Assembly: GCF_027943255.1 (NCBI RefSeq)
Contig: NC_072892.1
Location: 119,615,792 to 119,679,791, forward strand
DNA: 64,000 bases
From: Anastrepha obliqua
Lineage: Eukaryota > Arthropoda > Insecta > Diptera > Tephritidae
Direction of reading: 5' to 3'
This document shows positions 12,436-50,120 of the stretch, one piece after another. Each line of letters opens with the position of its first letter. The stretch's first letter is position 1. The position numbers and the translations under genes were made by a program. Below the pieces are notes generated by a model. That model made no database searches. It was not told the origin of the DNA and worked only from the letters and a program-made list of their open reading frames with translations.

Positions 12436-12824
12436 GTTGACAGGAAGAGGAAAGGATGGTAATCGGTCGGTGCAAGGTTCTGAAGATACGGCGTATGCTG
12501 AAGGACCTCCCATTCGAGCTCTTGGAGTGCGGCTTTGACGACTTCTGCAAGATTGGGCCTGGAGTTGCCGTGAAGAAGTATGATTTCACCATATTGATCA
12601 GGTCGTTTCAGTCGAATAGCCTTATTCACGCGATGTAGCTGGGCAATGTAGGGCTCCTGGTTGACCATAGCATTCTTTTCGAGCATTTCCCAGTGCACTT
12701 TGCCCTCCCAATCCCACCAAACTCATATCGTGATCTTCTTTAGATGAAGTTCCGGCTTGACTCTAGGCTTTGGCGTATCTCCTGGTGCCACCCACTCCTT
12801 TCTTTGCTTCATATTGATGTACAG
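12436..12824 (-). mobile_element. Mariner relic, C-terminal half (split by insertion)
   Basis: The minus strand encodes the second half of a mariner transposase: RVKPELHLKKI near 12740, VHWEMLEKNAMVNQEPYIAQ, then EIILLHGNSRPNLAEVVKAA (the second catalytic motif, normally HDN, here HGN) and LAPTDYHPFLF with the third aspartate. The other half lies at 16334-16800. The 3.5-kb transposon has split it just after the GDEKW motif. Substitution of the second catalytic Asp by Gly and the insertion make it dead. Confidence 0.8.
12817..12824. other. 8-bp target-site duplication, left copy
   Basis: ATGTACAG immediately left of the transposon. It is repeated exactly at 16334-16341. Removing one copy plus the element restores the mariner reading through WCLY. 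Eight-base duplications are typical of hAT-superfamily insertion. Confidence 0.9.
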
Positions 12825-12977
12825 TAGACCGGAGTGAAATACGTAAATTTTTTCAAATCATATCGTAATAGCAGGGAAAAGTTGCTACATATCAATACAA
12901 ATTTAGGAAAAAAAAGAAATTTCAAATCGGTTAATATCTTCCGTTCGCGCATTGCATTTAAAATTTACAAATTTTAT
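12825..12977 (+). repeat. Left terminal inverted repeat of the 3.5-kb transposon
   Basis: Starts TAGACCGGAGTGAAATACGT. Its 153 bases match the reverse complement of 16181-16333 except at three positions: one G/A near base 18, one T/C and one A/G around bases 80-90. The match stops abruptly after ACAAATTTTAT. Confidence 0.92.
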
Positions 12978-13454
12978 CCCAAATCTAGCTGATTTACGAA
13001 AACTTGTAGAAGTTGTAAATGATTAAAGATCGAGCTCCCTTTTTATACATAGCACTTTCAGCATTGAGTAGTAGATTTTTAATTTACTAATCTATCCATT
13101 TCTGTGGTTCTGAGCGATTAACTTTTACCAATTTTACACCAAATCTACTAAGGAAGCCTATGCCAAATGAGGCTTGCGTGAAAGCGGCTTACGGCTACTA
13201 CAACACGTCTGTGCTTTAGATCGTCTTCCACTTGGTTACTTGTATTCCATCGTCTTTCTTTTCATTTTGCTTTTGATTCTGGCATACCGATAAACGAAGT
13301 GCACGGAAGAGCTAGTACACTCTGGTCATTACCAGTTCTGCTTTCACTCTTGTCGAACAGCGCTGTTTGGTCAAAAAAAATTCTATTCGATGTTCTTTTG
13401 AATTACATAGTTTACACAATTACTTAACATTAAATCTCTTGAAACATTTTATTC

Positions 13455-15764
13455 ATGTCTCTTACTCGTAAGGACATACACTGCCCATTTTTTGGTGCAC
13501 CTAAACCACTGCTGTCATCGGTCCTTCCCACTAATACCGACATTATACAATGTTGGCAAGAAGTGAGGTACAAAATGTCAGTAGAATCTTCTGCTGCCAG
13601 TTCTGGTCAGAAGTTAAGCTTCACAGTTGTAGCAGATACTGTAGCTCATCAGACTGAGTCCCTTTATTCCAAGGCTTCGATTCCAATAGTTTCCCACACA
13701 AGAGTTGTACAAAAGATTAAACATCTACATGATCGATACTACACTCTTCGTAAATCTTATTCAAGGGACAAAGACACACCTGAGAAACAAAAGAAGTACA
13801 ATGATTTTATTGAACAATCTTCAAGTACATTATTTGACATTTCGTCCTGCAAGTGCGAGATGACACTCAATTGCTTTTGTCAAAGAAGCTTTGACAAGTG
13901 TATTTGTCCCAGGCCGGTAACTATCAACTGCACATGCCCTAAAGATAGAAAGATACCGCCATTAGAAATCAAATTTCTATATGCTCAAAGATATCTCGGA
14001 CAAGGAAAGATTGGGACAGTAGATACCAAAGAAACTCAAAAGCTTACATTAAAATTGCAGAGAAAAGCTCGTCACTTAAGTCAGACCAACTTACCTGGAC
14101 CTTCTTGTAGTAGTATTGATTCTGAAACAGAGATAACTCCTGAAGTTGACAATGCAAAGAATGATCCCGATTTTCAGACCCCACGCTCTATTTCCTCTCA
14201 GTCAGCAAGTTCAAAAAATGCACAGATGCGCTTATCACTTCCAGCAACGGCCTTAACAAGTGATCGTTTTGGAGTATCTGATAGAGCAGCAGCAGCTATT
14301 GTGTCTAGTGCATTTAAAGACGTTGGTCTTATAACGGACAAAGATACTTCTTTTGTTGTTGATCGAAGCAAAATGAGAAGAGAAAAAGAAAAATGTAGAC
14401 TAAAACTTATCGAAGCGGGGAATGCAATAGAGCAATTAAACGATCCGATGTGTGTGTATTTTGATGGCAGGATGGATGACACTTTAGTTTTAGTTGAAAA
14501 AGGAAACAAACGTTATCAATCTATAAAAAAAGAAGAGCACATTTCAGTAATAGCAGAACCAGGCTCAAAGTACCTTTGTCATTTAGTACCTACTTCAAAA
14601 AGTGGAAAGGACACAGCATACAGCATTGTAAATTATTTTGAAGAAAATGGTATAAATCAATCTAATGTTGTAGTGATTGGATGTGATGGTACGTCAACAA
14701 ATACTGGGTGGAAGAATGGTGCAATAAAATTCATTGAAACGCGTTTAAAAAGACCAGTACAATGGGCTATCTGTCTCCTGCATTTTAATGAATTACCTCT
14801 GAGGCATCTAGTTGAAATACTTGATGGTAAAACAACAGGTCCTCAGTCTTTCAGTGGGCTTCTTGGCAAACAGCTGGCTAAATGTGAATCTTTGTCCATC
14901 GTTGCTTTTCAGAGAATCGAATGCTCTCTTCCACGAACGCTTGACGCAATAAGCTTAAGTAAAGATCAGAAATACTTACATGACATTGCCATTGCTATTG
15001 ATGCTGGTTTTTGCTCCCCAGATCTAGCAAATCGAGATCCGGGACCAATATCACACTCTCGTTGGTTGACAATTGCAAACAGGTTCCTACGATTATACAT
15101 TTCTTTGCAGGAGCCATCTAAAAATCTCATTCAAATTGTAAAATACATTTTGACTGTATACGCACCTCTATGGTTCGAAATCAAAACAAATTCGTCAATA
15201 GTTGACGGACCTAAACATATTTTAGAATGTATTAAAAAATGTAGAATCTTATCTTCAGAAGTCCAGGCAGTAGTTCATAAGGTTATTCAAACAAATTCCT
15301 TTTTTGCCCATCCAGAAAACATTCTTCTCTCGATGGTGGTAGATGACAGAGAGCATGTCCGCGATCTTGGATTGAGGCGAGTTCTGAAAATAAAAGAAAT
15401 CCCTTCAAAAGACAAAAATATTAGAAACTTTTTGGTTCCTAAACTGAACTTTGAAGCAAATGAATATTTTGAGTTAATTAATTGGTCTGAAATGAAACTT
15501 ACCTGCCCCCCAATTTTAGACAGCCTTTCTTCTGAAGATATCTTGCAATTAATTTCTGATAAAGAAAAACCTAAATTAACCATAGATTTAACAAATATTC
15601 CATGCCATACGCAAGCTATGGAGAGTTGCGTAAAACTAGTAACTCAAGCGTCCTCAAAAGTGTATGGGAACGAGAGACGTGATGGGTTTATAAGAGCAGC
15701 ACTCACTTCTCGTACAGTTATGCCTCAATTTGACACTAAAGCAGACTTTGCCACTCCCGAATAA
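13455..15764 (+). CDS. Transposase-like protein of the 3.5-kb element, 769 aa
   Basis: A single ATG-initiated frame fills the centre of the transposon. A cluster of four CxC pairs (Cys 132/134, 140/142, 149/151, 159/161) probably binds zinc and may bind DNA. A low-complexity serine-rich linker (about 210-260) and a charged stretch (305-320) follow. The catalytic-like core shows YFDGR (Asp337), IGCDGTSTNTG (Asp411), CLLHFNELPLRH (Cys440, His443) and SRWLT (Arg-Trp 536-537). This order recalls hAT transposases: first Asp, second Asp, C-x2-H, RW. A conserved-looking C-terminal block (IPCHTQAMESCVKLVT, about 716-731) could supply the last acidic residue (Glu723); this is inference. The stop codon lies within AATAAATAA, so a poly(A) signal overlaps it. 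I recall similar uncharacterised proteins in other arthropods but cannot verify this. No stops or frameshifts are present. Confidence 0.85.
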   Translation: MSLTRKDIHCPFFGAPKPLLSSVLPTNTDIIQCWQEVRYKMSVESSAASSGQKLSFTVVADTVAHQTESLYSKASIPIVSHTRVVQKIKHLHDRYYTLRKSYSRDKDTPEKQKKYNDFIEQSSSTLFDISSCKCEMTLNCFCQRSFDKCICPRPVTINCTCPKDRKIPPLEIKFLYAQRYLGQGKIGTVDTKETQKLTLKLQRKARHLSQTNLPGPSCSSIDSETEITPEVDNAKNDPDFQTPRSISSQSASSKNAQMRLSLPATALTSDRFGVSDRAAAAIVSSAFKDVGLITDKDTSFVVDRSKMRREKEKCRLKLIEAGNAIEQLNDPMCVYFDGRMDDTLVLVEKGNKRYQSIKKEEHISVIAEPGSKYLCHLVPTSKSGKDTAYSIVNYFEENGINQSNVVVIGCDGTSTNTGWKNGAIKFIETRLKRPVQWAICLLHFNELPLRHLVEILDGKTTGPQSFSGLLGKQLAKCESLSIVAFQRIECSLPRTLDAISLSKDQKYLHDIAIAIDAGFCSPDLANRDPGPISHSRWLTIANRFLRLYISLQEPSKNLIQIVKYILTVYAPLWFEIKTNSSIVDGPKHILECIKKCRILSSEVQAVVHKVIQTNSFFAHPENILLSMVVDDREHVRDLGLRRVLKIKEIPSKDKNIRNFLVPKLNFEANEYFELINWSEMKLTCPPILDSLSSEDILQLISDKEKPKLTIDLTNIPCHTQAMESCVKLVTQASSKVYGNERRDGFIRAALTSRTVMPQFDTKADFATPE

Positions 15765-16180
15765 ATAATTTTTCATCTTTGGTTGGTTGGTTGGGAAGGG
15801 AGTGGGTGGAACTCGTAGTACAGTCACCTTCAAGCGGTGAGTTCTGAGTCGTCCAAAAAGGGCGGGCCAAGAGCTGTACAAAACTTCTTTAAGATAGTGT
15901 GGTTAGTGGGCGCGCTAAGAGGGGAATAATTTATTCTACTTATATACTCAAGAAGACTTATACAAAAATTAAAATAGAGAAACTAACCACCCGCAATTAC
16001 GTAAATTTATACAAAAAATGACATTTTCCACTTCTTTTCAGGGGCTGTAGGGGCTTTGATAGAGCGGTAGACGTTTTTCTTTTCAAACTATACCTGATGT
16101 TGTAATAGTCTACAAAAAATGAACTTTATCTAACATCATTTCCACCTCTTACAATTTTTCGAATATTTGTTCAATTTATT

Positions 16181-16333
16181 ATAAAATTTGTAAATTTTAA
16201 ATGCAATGCGCGAACGGAAGATATTAACCGATTTGAAATTTCTTCTTTTTCCTGAATTTGTATTGATATGTAGCAACTTTTCCCTGCTATTACGATATGA
16301 TTTGAAAAAATTTATGTATTTCACTCCGGTCTA
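16181..16333 (-). repeat. Right terminal inverted repeat of the 3.5-kb transposon
   Basis: Reverse complement of 12825-12977 with about 98% identity by eye. It ends CACTCCGGTCTA immediately before the second ATGTACAG copy at 16334-16341. Confidence 0.92.
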
Positions 16334-16800
16334 ATGTACAGGCACCATTTCTCATCTCCCGTGACGATTCGGTACAAAAAGCGCTGTTTATGAACGCATT
16401 TTGCTCGATGGCGGGCGAGATGCTGAGAAGCAATTTGAAGACGACTCTCTTTGTTTTTTTCCTTGAGCTCCTGAAGCTCTCAGGCTCCGAATTTTTCGGT
16501 AAATCCCATTGAATGGAGTTTATTGAGAATCATTTAATGATCCCAGTTCATTTTTTCCGCCAATTCACGACTGGTTTGGCGACTGTTCTCCTTCAAACGT
16601 GCTTTGAGACGTTTTTCATCGAATTCAGAAGTCCTTCCGCTACGTGACGTGACATCGGTGTCAATGTCGCCATTTTTGATCTTTGCAAACCATTTCCGTG
16701 CTGTAGACTCACCTATGACACCTGCTCCTCACGCGTCGCAAATGTCCCGGCCTGCTTTGGCAGATGCCTCCTCGTTATTCTATTTCTAAGCTTTCAAACT
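16334..16800 (-). mobile_element. Mariner relic, N-terminal half (split by insertion)
   Basis: On the minus strand from about 16790 down, the frame (with shifts) encodes STARKWFAKIKNGDIDTDV, then RTSEFDEKRLKARLKENSRQ, both parts of the mariner helix-turn-helix domain. Further down it encodes FLYRIVTGDEKWCLY, ending at the insertion site. It joins 12436-12824 across the transposon. Several stops are present. Sequence to about 17120 (CAGGGTCTGTCGCAAAAG in reverse complement) may be its outer end, but I did not find a matching partner. Confidence 0.78.
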
Positions 16801-22060: not shown

Positions 22061-22459
22061 ATAGTAGTGCAAGATAAAAAATATTCCAAAAGTTGTGTAC
22101 CATACATACATGCCCTTAAAAAACGGGAAATGCAAATCAATAGTCAAATAGGAAAAATTCTGAGTCCCTATTCTGTTTGTAAGCTTGGCCACAAGAGTAA
22201 TAAAAGTTGACTTATCTTTAAGGGAATTAGTTTTAGTGATTAATTTATGCATATTTACATGAAAAAGAATTATTTAGGATCTGGCAGGCAAATAGGTTTA
22301 CATAGGCTTGAGAATACCAAATAAGGATTGAGTTCAAATTATTTGCCGATGTAAAAAATGTATTGTTACGCAAAAGATTTTTGAGCTCCATCTATGTAAA
22401 TGTACATAATAAACTAAATAAATATATTCAAAGACTCCTTTCAATCTTTCTACTTGCAG
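22061..22459 (+). other. Upstream region or intron of the second peritrophin-like gene
   Basis: The open frame continues leftward to a TTG at 22363 but contains no ATG. Bases 22441-22459 (TCAATCTTTCTACTTGCAG) form a strong splice acceptor. I therefore read this as intron, with a short first exon carrying the ATG somewhere upstream. I could not locate that exon. Confidence 0.5.
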
Positions 22460-22950
22460 TTGCTCTAGCATTACTGGCATGCCTTTTTTGCCTAACCACA
22501 GCTGCCATCATACCCCTCGACGATGCTGAAGTGAAGGCGACTACAGACTGCTTATATGAAGATGAGTTATGGGGCACTGAGGATGGTACCAAATTCTATT
22601 ACTGCCTACCGGACAACAGCTCAGCCATCATACAATCGTGTCCCACGGATACTTTCTTTGTGCGCAATGAAACCGTCACTGGTTGCATTCCATTATCTAT
22701 GATGAGTTCCAATTGTGTGTATAATGTCACTGTTGGCTCATGTACGGGCGAAAATCTCAAACAACCACAACCCAATTTGGCACCAAATAAATTCTATCTT
22801 TGCACGAGTGAGGGAGCCACACCATTGGCGTTGTCTTGCACGGATGGCAAAGCGTTCGTAAAACAAGATGGATATTTGGGTTGTTTCGATTGGTCGGTAT
22901 GGCGTAAGTTGCGGCAGTGCTACACTCTCACCAACCAGATATCAGAATAA
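22460..22950 (+). CDS. Secreted peritrophin-like protein, terminal exon
   Basis: The exon opens in codon phase 1 after the acceptor at 22458-22459 and runs to TAA at 22948-22950. It begins with a hydrophobic secretion signal core (VALALLACLFCLTTAA). Two tandem five-cysteine blocks follow. Block 1 is TTDC, then FYYC, SC, TGC and SNC; block 2 is GSC, then FYLC, LSC, LGC and RQC. An aromatic pair before the second cysteine of each block, and FDWSVW after the fourth of block 2, match the left-edge gene. Chitin binding at the gut lining or cuticle is expected from family features. N-glycosylation sequons (NSS, NET, NVT) are visible. AATAAA spans the stop codon at 22946-22951, so the 3' untranslated region may be very short. 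The initiator exon is missing from this call. The frame has no lesions and is probably functional. Confidence 0.82.
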
Positions 22951-23464: not shown

Positions 23465-24812
23465 CTTAGTCCACCATAAGTTCTGTTACAAGTTATAGAT
23501 ATAAGTTAAGTTAAGTCCATTATAGATATGAAATTATAAAACTTTTTTAAGTTTGTGCGTATTTTACCCATAATTTCACTTTTGTACGAAGTTTGCATAT
23601 GAAAAATTATTTGTGGAATATAACAGAACTATTTATATTTTCTTTGATATATTGTGCATTCAAAAAGTGATTTTAATCGCGGATAGAAGCAGGTGTTGTT
23701 AAAAAATAAAATGGAATCTTCGAACGCGTATAAGGGGCATATTTTGTATTTTTTTTATAAAAGTGGTAAAAATGCAACAACTGCTGCTGCAGAAATAAAC
23801 ACTGTTCAAGGAGAGGATACCGCGAGTGTAAGGACTGCGCAAAAGTGGTTTTCAAAACTCCGAAGTGGTAACTGCGACGTGGAGGATGCCCCACGCGCTA
23901 GTCGTCCTGAAGTCTTTAACTCCGACCCCTTGTTCGAACTCGTGGAGGCTGAGCCAAATTTGACAGTCGATATGATAGCCCAGAGATTAAATTCATCGCA
24001 TGGAACAGTTCACAGACACCTGGTTCAGGTGGAAAAGGTTTCAAAGCGGGGAAATGAGTTCCGCATAGACTTTCCGTCGCCAGCCTTCAGCAGAGAGTGA
24101 ATGTGTGTTCTCAGCTACTGCAACGGCTTGAAAATGAATGTTTTTTTAACCGTATCGTTACTGGTGATGAAAAATAGGTATTTTACAATAATCTTGTTCG
24201 CAAACGCCAATGGTTGGATAAAAATGAAACACCAGAACCGACCCCTAGAGATGGCCTTCACCCCAAGAAGATTCTCCTGTATATTTGGTGGGATATGGCC
24301 GGTATTGTTTACTATGAACTTCTGCAACCAAACCAGACGATAACTGCTGATTATTATTCCCACCAGCTATCAAGCCTAAACGAGACACTTAACAAAAATC
24401 GACCGCCTTTAGTGAATAGACGCAAAGTTTTGTTTCACCACGACAACGCAAGACCTCATACCGCGAGGCAAACATTAGGCAAGCTGAACGAGCTCGGATG
24501 GGAGCTAATGCCACATCCACCATACTCTCCGGATATTGCACCTTGTGATTATCACCTTTTCCGTGGACTTCAATCCCATATGAGTAACAAGAACTACTCC
24601 TCAAAAGAAGCTATAAAAAGGGATATCGAAGCGTATTTTGGCTGCAAGGACAAAAAATTTGTTGAGCAGGGAATTAAAAATGTGTCTAAACGTTGGGAAG
24701 ACATTGTAAATAATGAAGGAAAATATATTATTGATTAATAAATACTTTAAACATCTTTTTTATTAATTTTAAATCTACCTTTAAAAACACACGAACTTAT
24801 GGACTGACCTGA
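23465..24812 (+). mobile_element. Near full-length mariner element
   Basis: The right end in reverse complement reads TCAGGTCAGTCCATAAGTTC; the left end near 23465 reads CTTAGTCCACCATAAGTTCT. These form imperfect inverted repeats next to TA. Length is about 1.35 kb, the usual mariner size, and the broken transposase gene at 23711-24738 fills it. Confidence 0.8.
23711..24738 (+). pseudogene. Mariner transposase with one frameshift and one nonsense codon
   Basis: The ATG at 23711 opens a frame encoding the paired helix-turn-helix DNA-binding domain (FYKSGKNATTAAAEI, VRTAQKWFSKLRSGN, RPEVFNSDPL). The frame shifts around 24030-24090. In the next frame RIVTGDEK is followed by TAG where mariners have Trp (24176-24178). 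The frame then runs intact from 24179 to 24738. It includes HHDNARPHTARQTL and PPYSPDIAPCDYHLF, with exactly 34 residues between the last two catalytic aspartates, so this is a DD34D mariner. Two simple lesions make it a young pseudogene. It lies about 760 bases downstream of the second peritrophin-like gene, in the same orientation, with no functional link. Confidence 0.85.
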
Positions 24813-28647: not shown

Positions 28648-29830
28648 TTTATTTATTTATTTACAGACGTGAAATAATAATACAATTATTCTTACACGTA
28701 AAACAGGAGCACTGGCTGCCATGACCTTCGGCTCGCTGATGTAAAAGTAACAGATAGTTAGCTTAAAGGTCTTACATGTAAAACGAGACTAGAAAACTTA
28801 ATTAATTAAGACTATGGTAAAAATATAGTAACTATGGTAGAAGAACAAACATCAAATCAATTTTTTCAGTCCTGATTTAACTAGCAATTCTGACATTTTT
28901 GATATATTTTCTGAGGAAGTAGTTCTTAGCAGTGTAGAAGGTCCTTGGTTTCGGAAGATACTTTTCCTGATTTGTTCAAAATGTGGACAGTCATCGAGTA
29001 GGTGGCAGACCGTTAAAGATGGTGAGTGACAGTGTTGGCAGCATGGAAAGCTGAAACCATTATAGGCGTAGGAATGTGTGGCTATTGTCTGCCCTAGACG
29101 AAGGCGGACAAATGATTTGATATCGTTGCAACGGCAATTTAATGGGTAGTTTGGTTTTATCCTGTTTGGATTATTTCCGATATAATGATGGGAAAAGGAT
29201 TCCCAATTGACCATTTGTGCATTATAGTGCCTGTGATATATAAATTTGTATATGTCTTTTTTCGAAATATAGTCGAAAGTTATTAGTGGTTCTTTACCAG
29301 CGAGTTTAGCCCGTTCGTCCGCTAGATTGTTCCGTCTTATGCCTGCATGGCCTGGAACCCACAAAAGTTTTATGCGCTCGCTGGTCTTTAATAATTTGCT
29401 CCGGATACAGGAGATGATGTGCGTCTTGTTCATTGGTTTCATTATCGGGTAAATGACTGATTTGCTATCCGTGCAAATTACTGCTTTCGGTAAAGAGTTT
29501 TCAGCGAAGGTAATACCACGAAGGAGCGCTGCAGCTTCGGAAGTGATACCAATCTCTTTGGCGTAATTGATGCACAGTGCAATTGTCGATTTGACACTAC
29601 TTCATATAAAGCGCTGTTGTAGCAAAGAAATAGCTTAGGTATAAGTTCCTTCGTATTCGTCGTGAATCTCTCTTCAATTTTGGGGAGGCCGGCTTCCGTC
29701 AGTATAAATTTTGTTAGGGATTTTAGCCGCGTCGTAAGCTGAGTAAATTAGTTTTATGTTGCTTTTCGCACAGTTACCATAAATGGGAAGGCCATACATG
29801 GTCTATCTTCGATAATATGAGTGCCCTGGT
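28648..29830 (-). mobile_element. I-like LINE 3' part with RNase H domain and TAAA tail
   Basis: The minus strand from about 29600 to 28852 carries an open frame of about 250 codons. It contains GITSEAAALLRGITF (RNase H catalytic Glu), AVICTDSKSVIYP (catalytic Asp), LLWVPGHAGIRRNNLADERA (last catalytic block) and a C-terminal FPCCQHCHSPSLTVCHLL zinc motif ending in KKLI. A (TAAA)n tail at 28648-28662 marks the 3' end. The retained open frame suggests a fairly young 5'-truncated copy. RNase H followed by a CCHC-like motif and an A-rich tandem tail fits the I clade. Confidence 0.78.
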
Positions 29831-30999: not shown

Positions 31000-31790
31000 C
31001 ATGAACGGTTCGTTTTGGCCTCTTTGTTTCCGAATAACCGCTTACGCTATTTTGGCCGAATTTAGCAAAGCGCGCCAGTCGTATTCTTTTTCGTGCTACT
31101 CGGGGCTAGTTGGACACACCAAGTGAAGCCAAGTCCTTCTCCACCTGATCTTTCCAACGCAAAGGAGGCCATCCTCTTCCTCTGCTACCTCCAGCTGGTA
31201 CCGCATCGAATACTTTCAGAGCTGGAACGTTTGTATCCATTCGGACGACATGACGCAGCTAACGTAGCCGCTGGATCTTTATTCGCTGCGCTATGTCTAT
31301 GTCGTCGTAAAGCTCATACTGCTCATCGTTCCATCGTCTGCGATATTCCCCGTTGCCAACGTGAAAAAGTACAAAAATCTTGCGCAGAATTTTTCTCTCA
31401 AACACTCCAAGCGTCGCTTCATTGGATGTTGTCATCGTGCACGCTTCTGCGCCATACGTTAGGATGGGCATGATGAGAGTCTTGTAGAGTGTTAGTTTTG
31501 TTCGTCGAGAGAGGACTTTACTACTCAATTGCCTACTTAGCCCTAAGTAGCACTTGTTGGCAAGAGAAATTCTACGTTGGATTTCCAGGCTGACATTGTT
31601 ATAGGTGTTAGTGCTGGTTCCTAAATACCCGAAGTCTTTTACAATTTCGAAATTATAACTGTCAACAGTGACGTGGGTGTCGATACACGAATGCGCCGAC
31701 TGATTGTTTGATGACAGAAGATACTTCGTTTTGCCCTCGTTCACCACCATTCGATTTGCCTCTTTATCTTTATTGGAGAAGGCAGAAAGG
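31000..31790 (-). mobile_element. RTE-like LINE C-terminal half, mostly open
   Basis: The minus-strand frame 31750-31259 encodes VVNEGKTKYLLSSNNQSAHS, then FGYLGTSTNTYNNVSLEIQR and ANKCYLGLSRQLSSKVLSRR. It continues with TLIMPILTYGAEACT, LGVFERKILRKIFV and IAQRIKIQRLRWL, the RT thumb and connection region. After a stop or shift near 31200 it continues to the GRGWPPLRWKDQVEKDLASL tail ending near 31100. This is the best preserved member of its family in the window. The 5' side, including the catalytic YADD, is missing. Confidence 0.78.
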
Positions 31791-49274: not shown

Positions 49275-50120
49275 GTGTATAAGGCTTTTACAGAGGGCCG
49301 AGAAGTCGTGGAAGGTTTGCCTGGTTGCCCATCATGGTGCTGGAAAACGATTATTTTAGTTTGAGGCAGATAGCTTGTGACCTTAGCCATTTTACACCAC
49401 CAATTGGGCATGAGACGCGGGACTGCTCGACTCGTTCCAAGAGAGTTGAATTTCTTCAAAAAAATTAATCGGAAGAAGGTGGCTGAAAGCATGCTTGAGC
49501 AAGTGAATTCGGACCCAATCCACCGCATTATAACAGGTGATGAGACGTGGGTATATCAGTTTGACATGCAAACAGAGCCGAACCCCAAAAAACCACTTCA
49601 AAGTCGGTCAAAACTGGAATTCATTCCAACTGGAATTCATTCAACGATAAATAAAGAATATTATTTGGAAGTTATGCGGCGCTTGCGGCGAGAGAATGTG
49701 CGTAAGGAACGGCCCAATTTGTGGAAAGAAAACCCATGGACCTTGCACCATGATAACGCAGCGTCTCACAAGGGTCATATTGTGAACAATTTTTTTACCA
49801 AAAACTCGACAAATATCATCGAACAACCACCGTTTTCACCGGATTTAGCCCCCTGTAACTTTTTCCTTTTCCCAAAATTTAAATTGCCACTCCGCGGACG
49901 CCGCTATGAGCCGATAGAGGTCATTAAGGAGAATTCACTAAAGGAGCTGATGAAGATCTCTTCAAACGTGTTTAAAAGATGCTTTGATGACTGGACTAAC
50001 CATTGACATATGTGTATTGCTTCGAATGGAGCTTATTTTGAAGTCGACAAAATAAATTTTGATGACTAAACAATTATTTTGCGTTTTGTTGAACAATTTC
50101 CGGTACATTTTTGACAGAAT
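49275..50120 (+). mobile_element. 5'-truncated mariner element
   Basis: Starts immediately after a SINE. It contains a degraded N-terminal DNA-binding portion (to about 49376) and an open catalytic region (49377-50006). It ends near 50120 with 3' untranslated sequence (AAGTCGACAAAATAAATTTT). The left terminal repeat is missing. Confidence 0.7.
49377..50006 (+). pseudogene. Mariner transposase catalytic region, Asp-to-Asn at the third catalytic site
   Basis: The 209-codon open frame has no ATG at its start (first codon GTG), so it is the surviving part of a truncated gene. It encodes GMRRGTARLVPRELNFFKKI, IITGDETWVYQFDMQTEP (first catalytic Asp), LHHDNAASHKGHIVNNFF (second) and PPFSPDLAPCNFFLFPKFKL, where the third Asp is Asn. 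The segment after KPLQSRSK is shortened, and a 16-base tandem duplication (AACTGGAATTCATTCC) lies at the lesion near 49613-49645. It then runs to DDWTNH and a stop. It is catalytically dead by sequence. A DD34N change is also known in the mariner domain of the primate SETMAR protein, which retains DNA binding. Confidence 0.78.

What the first reader, a model, noticed from the sequence alone, without database searches (positions are those of the whole stretch)
12825..16333. Complete, young DNA transposon with an uncharacterised transposase-like gene
Seen directly: 153-bp inverted repeats with three mismatches, an exact 8-bp target duplication (ATGTACAG) and one uninterrupted 769-codon gene. The 8-bp duplication and the D..D..CxxH..RW motif order suggest the hAT superfamily. 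Inference: the long inverted repeats and TAGACCGG termini do not fit ordinary hAT ends, so this may be a separate, undescribed clade that is still mobile.
Basis: partly seen in the sequence, partly recalled or inferred. Interest (0 to 1): 0.88.

Follow-up and report, generated by a model that had tools for sequence, protein, structure and literature searches.

The report
Recently active hAT-like jumping gene
A complete cut-and-paste jumping gene that has recently multiplied in its host genome; its enzyme is predicted to fold like hAT transposases but matched none of the protein-family models tested, so it may be a divergent branch of a known kind.

The parts
12817..12824 (.). left target-site duplication ATGTACAG
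   Evidence: exact match to 16334-16341
12825..12977 (+). left terminal inverted repeat, 153 bp, begins TAGACCGGAGTGAAAT
   Evidence: mismatches to the right repeat only at 19, 80 and 89
13455..15764 (+). transposase ORF, 769 codons plus stop, uninterrupted
   Evidence: 232 homologous proteins at E <= 1e-3 in a capped search
13455..14090 (+). N-terminal domain, residues 1-212: helices plus CxC...CxC (C132, C134, C159, C161); DNA-binding role inferred, no known fold found
14463..14465 (+). D337, proposed first catalytic Asp (Hermes D180 by position in the motif series)
   Evidence: 106 of 106; Hermes letters
14685..14687 (+). D411, proposed second catalytic Asp (Hermes D248 by position in the motif series)
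   Evidence: 106 of 106; Hermes letters
14772..14783 (+). C440-x-x-H443 (Hermes C265-x-x-H268)
   Evidence: 106 of 106 for both
15060..15065 (+). R536-W537 (Hermes R318-W319)
   Evidence: 106 of 106 for both
15621..15626 (+). E723, proposed third catalytic acid (Hermes E572), followed by S724, which is Arg in the other 105 of 106 aligned proteins
16181..16333 (-). right terminal inverted repeat, 153 bp
16334..16341 (.). right target-site duplication ATGTACAG
12600..12816 (-). mariner remnant into which the element inserted, one side (outer border approximate)
   Evidence: joined flanks read a mariner-type transposase across the site, PF01359 E 1.8e-20
16342..16541 (-). mariner remnant, other side (outer border approximate)
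31172..31762 (-). paralogous empty site for another copy (L016, duplication CTCATCAT), no gap within 40 columns of the junction, 89.3% over 597 columns

Best explanation
A complete class II (cut-and-paste) transposon of the hAT kind, from a sequence lineage that the Pfam models tested do not recognise. Shown: defined ends, 8-bp duplications with the hAT target rule, empty sites, a recent multi-copy burst, and deleted copies sharing the same deletion at unrelated sites. Inferred: the 769-aa protein binds the 153-bp ends through its N-terminal Cys-rich helical domain, which stands in for the BED finger of other hATs. Its RNase H core (D337, D411, E723, with C440xxH443 and R536W537) then cuts the element out through flanking-end hairpins as Hermes does (chemistry recalled), and joins it across an 8-bp stagger at nTGTACAn-like sites; intact copies also move deleted ones.
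Against: No Pfam match for the window protein, and no hAT, BED or dimerisation model among the families shown for 107 members except two PF14372 scores I take for chance. Profile comparisons with two Hermes pieces are not significant (E 0.47 and 0.31), the first one residue out of register at the second Asp. Foldseek ranks P-element transposase level with Hermes (2.7e-4 against 5.3e-4). TIRs of 153 bp are long against the 10-25 bp given for hATs in PMC3942097 (passage). The terminal TAGAC departs from the recalled hAT rule YARNG at base 5.
Confidence: 0.82

Rival explanations
1. It is a hAT subfamily already catalogued in Repbase or Dfam under some label, so that only the Pfam models are missing.
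For: The clade is large (232 to 597 hits in capped searches), so repeat catalogues may hold members. PMC6004678 says that more than 74 hATm elements sit in Repbase with limited knowledge about them (passage).
Against: The one long-TIR hAT family I found in print, hATm, has TAGGGTG ends, and its member hATm-6 has PF05699; here the ends are TAGACCGG and PF05699 was not found (families shown). None of the 200 homologous proteins listed shows a precomputed Pfam domain or, as far as the cut names go, a transposase name.
Confidence: 0.35
2. It belongs to the P superfamily, or forms its own superfamily between hAT and P: P elements also make 8-bp duplications (recalled), and Galileo has long repeats.
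For: P-element transposase is Foldseek's first hit (6p5a, E 2.7e-4). A Galileo paper (P superfamily) was the one paper listed for the long-terminal-inverted-repeat search (listing and start of abstract only).
Confidence: 0.12
3. The element is dead: a recently extinct family in which no copy is still mobile.
For: Only 3 of 36 copies from the DNA search have the 769-codon frame, one more a 767-codon frame. The 17 longest copies differ from their majority by 0.31-0.72%, so no pair examined is proven brand-new. The window copy has S724.
Against: 12 of 65 protein matches are full length without stops; the first 176 bases are identical in all 40 copies scored, the window copy included.
Confidence: 0.2

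Closest known systems
Hermes (hAT superfamily; Ac-group label and house-fly origin recalled)
   Different: 769 against 612 aa; no BED finger found; 153-bp near-identical TIRs against two imperfect 17-bp TIRs; no significant sequence similarity
hATm family (PMC6004678, passages)
   Same: TAG start; long TIRs (417 and 575 bp in two members); 8-9 bp duplications
   Different: ends TAGGGTG against TAGACCGG; hATm-6 carries PF05699, not found here. No hATm protein was available to align
P element / Galileo (P superfamily)
   Same: RNase H-type transposase, Foldseek E 2.7e-4; long TIRs in Galileo (recalled; listing)
   Different: no THAP domain among the families shown; target rule and C-terminal motif are hAT-like
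ISCth4 transposase (copy-out/paste-in bacterial element; PMC7780238, start of abstract)
   Different: bacterial, other transposition pathway, shorter match

Membership tests
hAT superfamily | 8-bp target-site duplication | tested here: met
   40 of 49 copies exact; 3 more differ at one base
hAT superfamily | Hermes-type target rule nTnnnnAn | tested here: met
   T2 40 of 40, A7 39 of 40 exact duplications
hAT superfamily | RNase H core with helical insertion, Hermes-like fold | tested here: met
hAT superfamily | D...D...CxxH...RW...E(R) motif series | tested here: met
   D337, D411, C440, H443, R536, W537 and E723 in 106 of 106; R724 in 105 of 106, the window protein being the exception
hAT superfamily | hAT dimerisation domain PF05699 by sequence | tested here: not met
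   no Pfam match in the window protein; not among the 25 families shown of 31 and of 52 for 107 members. The motif PxxxxAxER occurs somewhere in 84 of 106
hAT superfamily | N-terminal BED zinc finger (common, not universal; recalled) | tested here: not met
   no Pfam match in the window protein; N-terminal model resembles no PDB fold found
hAT superfamily | terminal rule YARNG (recalled) | tested here: not met
   TAGAC agrees at 4 of 5 bases
hAT superfamily | flanking-DNA hairpin chemistry | not testable with these tools
   needs biochemistry
hATm family | 5'-TAGGGTG...CACCCTA-3' termini | tested here: not met
   TAGACCGG...CCGGTCTA in the copies with both ends, except one base in the right end of L057
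hATm family | transposase similarity to hATm | not tested
   no hATm sequence held
P superfamily | THAP domain (recalled) | tested here: not met
   no Pfam match in the window protein; not among the families shown for 107 members
P superfamily | P-element transposase fold | tested here: inconclusive
   Foldseek E 2.7e-4; not among the 50 VIA rows shown

The most novel reading that the evidence does not exclude
An arthropod-wide, previously unnamed major lineage of hAT-fold transposons that has replaced the BED finger with a new Cys-rich helical DNA-binding domain. It would combine long symmetrical ends with the Hermes target rule, and may sit near the split between hAT and P.
Probability: 0.4. 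Interest if true: 0.65.

Novelty: new variant of a known kind. Interest (0 to 1): 0.5.

Why it matters
If the lineage is as uncatalogued as it looks, hundreds of 'hypothetical proteins' (597 hits in one capped search) are transposases that annotation misses. Low-divergence copies in one genome make it a candidate for a working transposon. The N-terminal domain would show a second way of recognising hAT-type ends, and the family could help to test how the hAT and P superfamilies are related.

Tried and rejected
Sequence routes: Pfam, NCBIfam (4 proteins) and PDB by sequence gave nothing I trust. PF14372 hAT-like_RNase-H scored E 0.028 in one of 43 members and 0.072 in one of 65. In P0033 the match lies at residues 22-72, outside the catalytic domain, so I treat it as chance; the other was not placed. 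PF16095 (5 of 65, best E 5.5e-4) is unexplained and was not followed. Searches show 25 of 31 and 25 of 52 families; the rest I did not see.

Relatives' DNA: viral contigs gave none (43 pattern matches, 0 relatives). Genome contigs gave two: a piece of a relative at the end of a MAG contig (L049, probably contamination) and a 45-codon match in Echinicola (L050) that I take for chance. So the ends of other members of the clade were not seen.

Literature: the rows shown included no paper that I recognised as describing this lineage. These are partial listings (for example 20 of 278) of one open-licence library.

P-element chains were not among the 50 VIA rows; this does not exclude them.

Empty sites: 13 spanning matches; eight pairs were displayed. 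L016/window and L043/L039 are the two I count. L032 against window and against L022 also have no gap near the junction but are only 72-74% alike. Three L047 pairs and L048/L013 have 11-29 gap positions there, in L047 including the duplicated bases, and do not support a clean empty site.

Rows dropped: four of the 40 fetched copies (L025, L026, L031, L045) had no right end in the stretch and were left out of the duplication count. Of the eight of 36 without exact duplications, three differ at one base (L011, L039, L040), three have lost the right terminus (L015, L022, L023) and two (L013, L014) have both ends but unlike flanks. Of the 13 later copies, L052 has lost its right end. All copies were picked as best matches, so identity and intactness are biased upwards.

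Full report
What is there. The element occupies 12825-16333 (3,509 bp). Its two ends are 153-bp inverted repeats that differ at three positions (19, 80, 89), flanked by ATGTACAG on both sides. A single 769-codon ORF lies at 13455-15764 on the + strand.

The insertion event. The element sits inside an old mariner copy: the two flanks, joined with one copy of the duplication, read as a mariner-type transposase across the site (PF01359, E 1.8e-20). A related sequence in L039 aligns with these joined flanks at 79% over 599 columns, without a gap within 40 columns of the junction, and has ATGTATAG where the element's target ATGTACAG would be. Likewise the joined flanks of copy L016 match window 31172-31762 at 89.3% over 597 columns, with CTCATCAT once. 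These are paralogous empty sites. Of the eight pairs displayed, two more (both of L032, 72-74%) have no gap near the junction, and four (three of L047, one of L048) have 11-29 gap positions there; I count only the first two.

Copies. The host genome (836,466,488 bases, 204 contigs, unnamed) gave 340 candidates for the first 176 bases; the 40 scored are all 100% identical to the window copy there, one of them being the window copy. I fetched all 40 (L043 is the window copy). A right end was found for 36, of which 28 have exact 8-bp duplications and 3 differ at one base. A protein search gave 65 matches (58 of 969 candidates scored). Twelve of the 65 span residues 1-769 without a stop; two of these are one and two codons short. 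Thirteen further copies chosen from that list, eight uninterrupted and five with stops, gave exact duplications in 12. In total 40 of 49 are exact, with 36 different sequences, T at position 2 in 40 and A at position 7 in 39; the commonest letters spell ATGTACAT. In the first 28, information at positions 2, 3, 6 and 7 is 1.1-1.7 bits; in the 12 bases on each side of the duplication it is 0.01-0.54 bits.

Age and activity. Seventeen copies longer than 3,440 bp differ from their majority by 0.31-0.72%. Three others align with the window copy at 96-97% (L053-L055), which suggests at least one earlier wave. Five deletion classes are each shared by 2-4 copies, 13 of 36 copies in all, with unlike flanks among the sharers; 8 of the 13 still show their own exact duplication. 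Deleted copies cannot make the full protein, so they were probably moved by transposase from others; this is inference from the pattern. In the DNA-picked set, 3 of 36 copies keep the 769-codon frame.

The window copy is not quite the family norm. Residue 724, next to the proposed catalytic Glu, is Arg in 105 of 106 aligned proteins, the exception being the window's. Among 36 host copies it is Arg in 30, Ser in 5 (window copy included) and His in 1. Whether this matters for activity is unknown.

The protein. Pfam, NCBIfam and PDB sequence searches found nothing I trust. 107 distinct members were scanned against Pfam in two sets (43 and 65, one shared); the answers show 25 of 31 and 25 of 52 matched families. 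Homologs are numerous: 232, 235 and 597 at E <= 1e-3 in three capped searches, 120 listed in each. Where a listed row names an organism it is an arthropod: beetles, thrips, a phylloxera, an aphid, moths and a porcelain crab (common names recalled). One is named 'DUF4371 domain-containing', one 'MAU2 chromatid cohesion factor-like'; none of the names shown says transposase.

Classification. It works like a hAT element, and by fold, motifs and target rule I place it with the hAT superfamily. By sequence models (PF05699, BED) and by the recalled terminal rule it fails, so membership in the strict sense is not shown and I call it a divergent lineage of the hAT kind. The published hATm family (PMC6004678, passages) shows that long TIRs and a TAG start do occur in hATs, but its termini differ. 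BuT2/Tip (PMC3942097), Hermes (PMC10368747) and hATx-6 (PMC8721813) papers were seen in passages only; the last states the T2/A7 bias of Hermes. Whether Repbase already holds this lineage is open.

Noticed in passing
G000:C6:17301231-17329499 (L051 holds the first unit): Four copies of the element at about 8,655-base spacing with identical stop counts: probably a tandem duplication of a larger unit that contains the element.
   Followed up: partly
window 15624-15626 (codon 724 of the ORF): Ser replaces a near-invariant Arg beside the proposed catalytic Glu; 5 of 36 host copies have Ser there, window copy included.
   Followed up: partly
window 24178-24738 and 49374-50006: Two further ORFs that look like mariner-type transposase remnants (named by eye).
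   Followed up: no
window 28852-29601: ORF that looks like the RNase H end of a non-LTR retrotransposon (by eye).
   Followed up: no
window 22312-22950: ORF with spaced Cys resembling a peritrophin/chitin-binding protein, perhaps a host gene (by eye).
   Followed up: no
L049:3657-3902: A MAG contig labelled Anaerolineae carries a piece of a relative (up to 52% identity in the rows shown); probably animal contamination of the MAG.
   Followed up: partly
alignment A5 (no window coordinates): 5 of 65 family members match Pfam COR-A (PF16095), best E 5.5e-4; meaning unclear.
   Followed up: no
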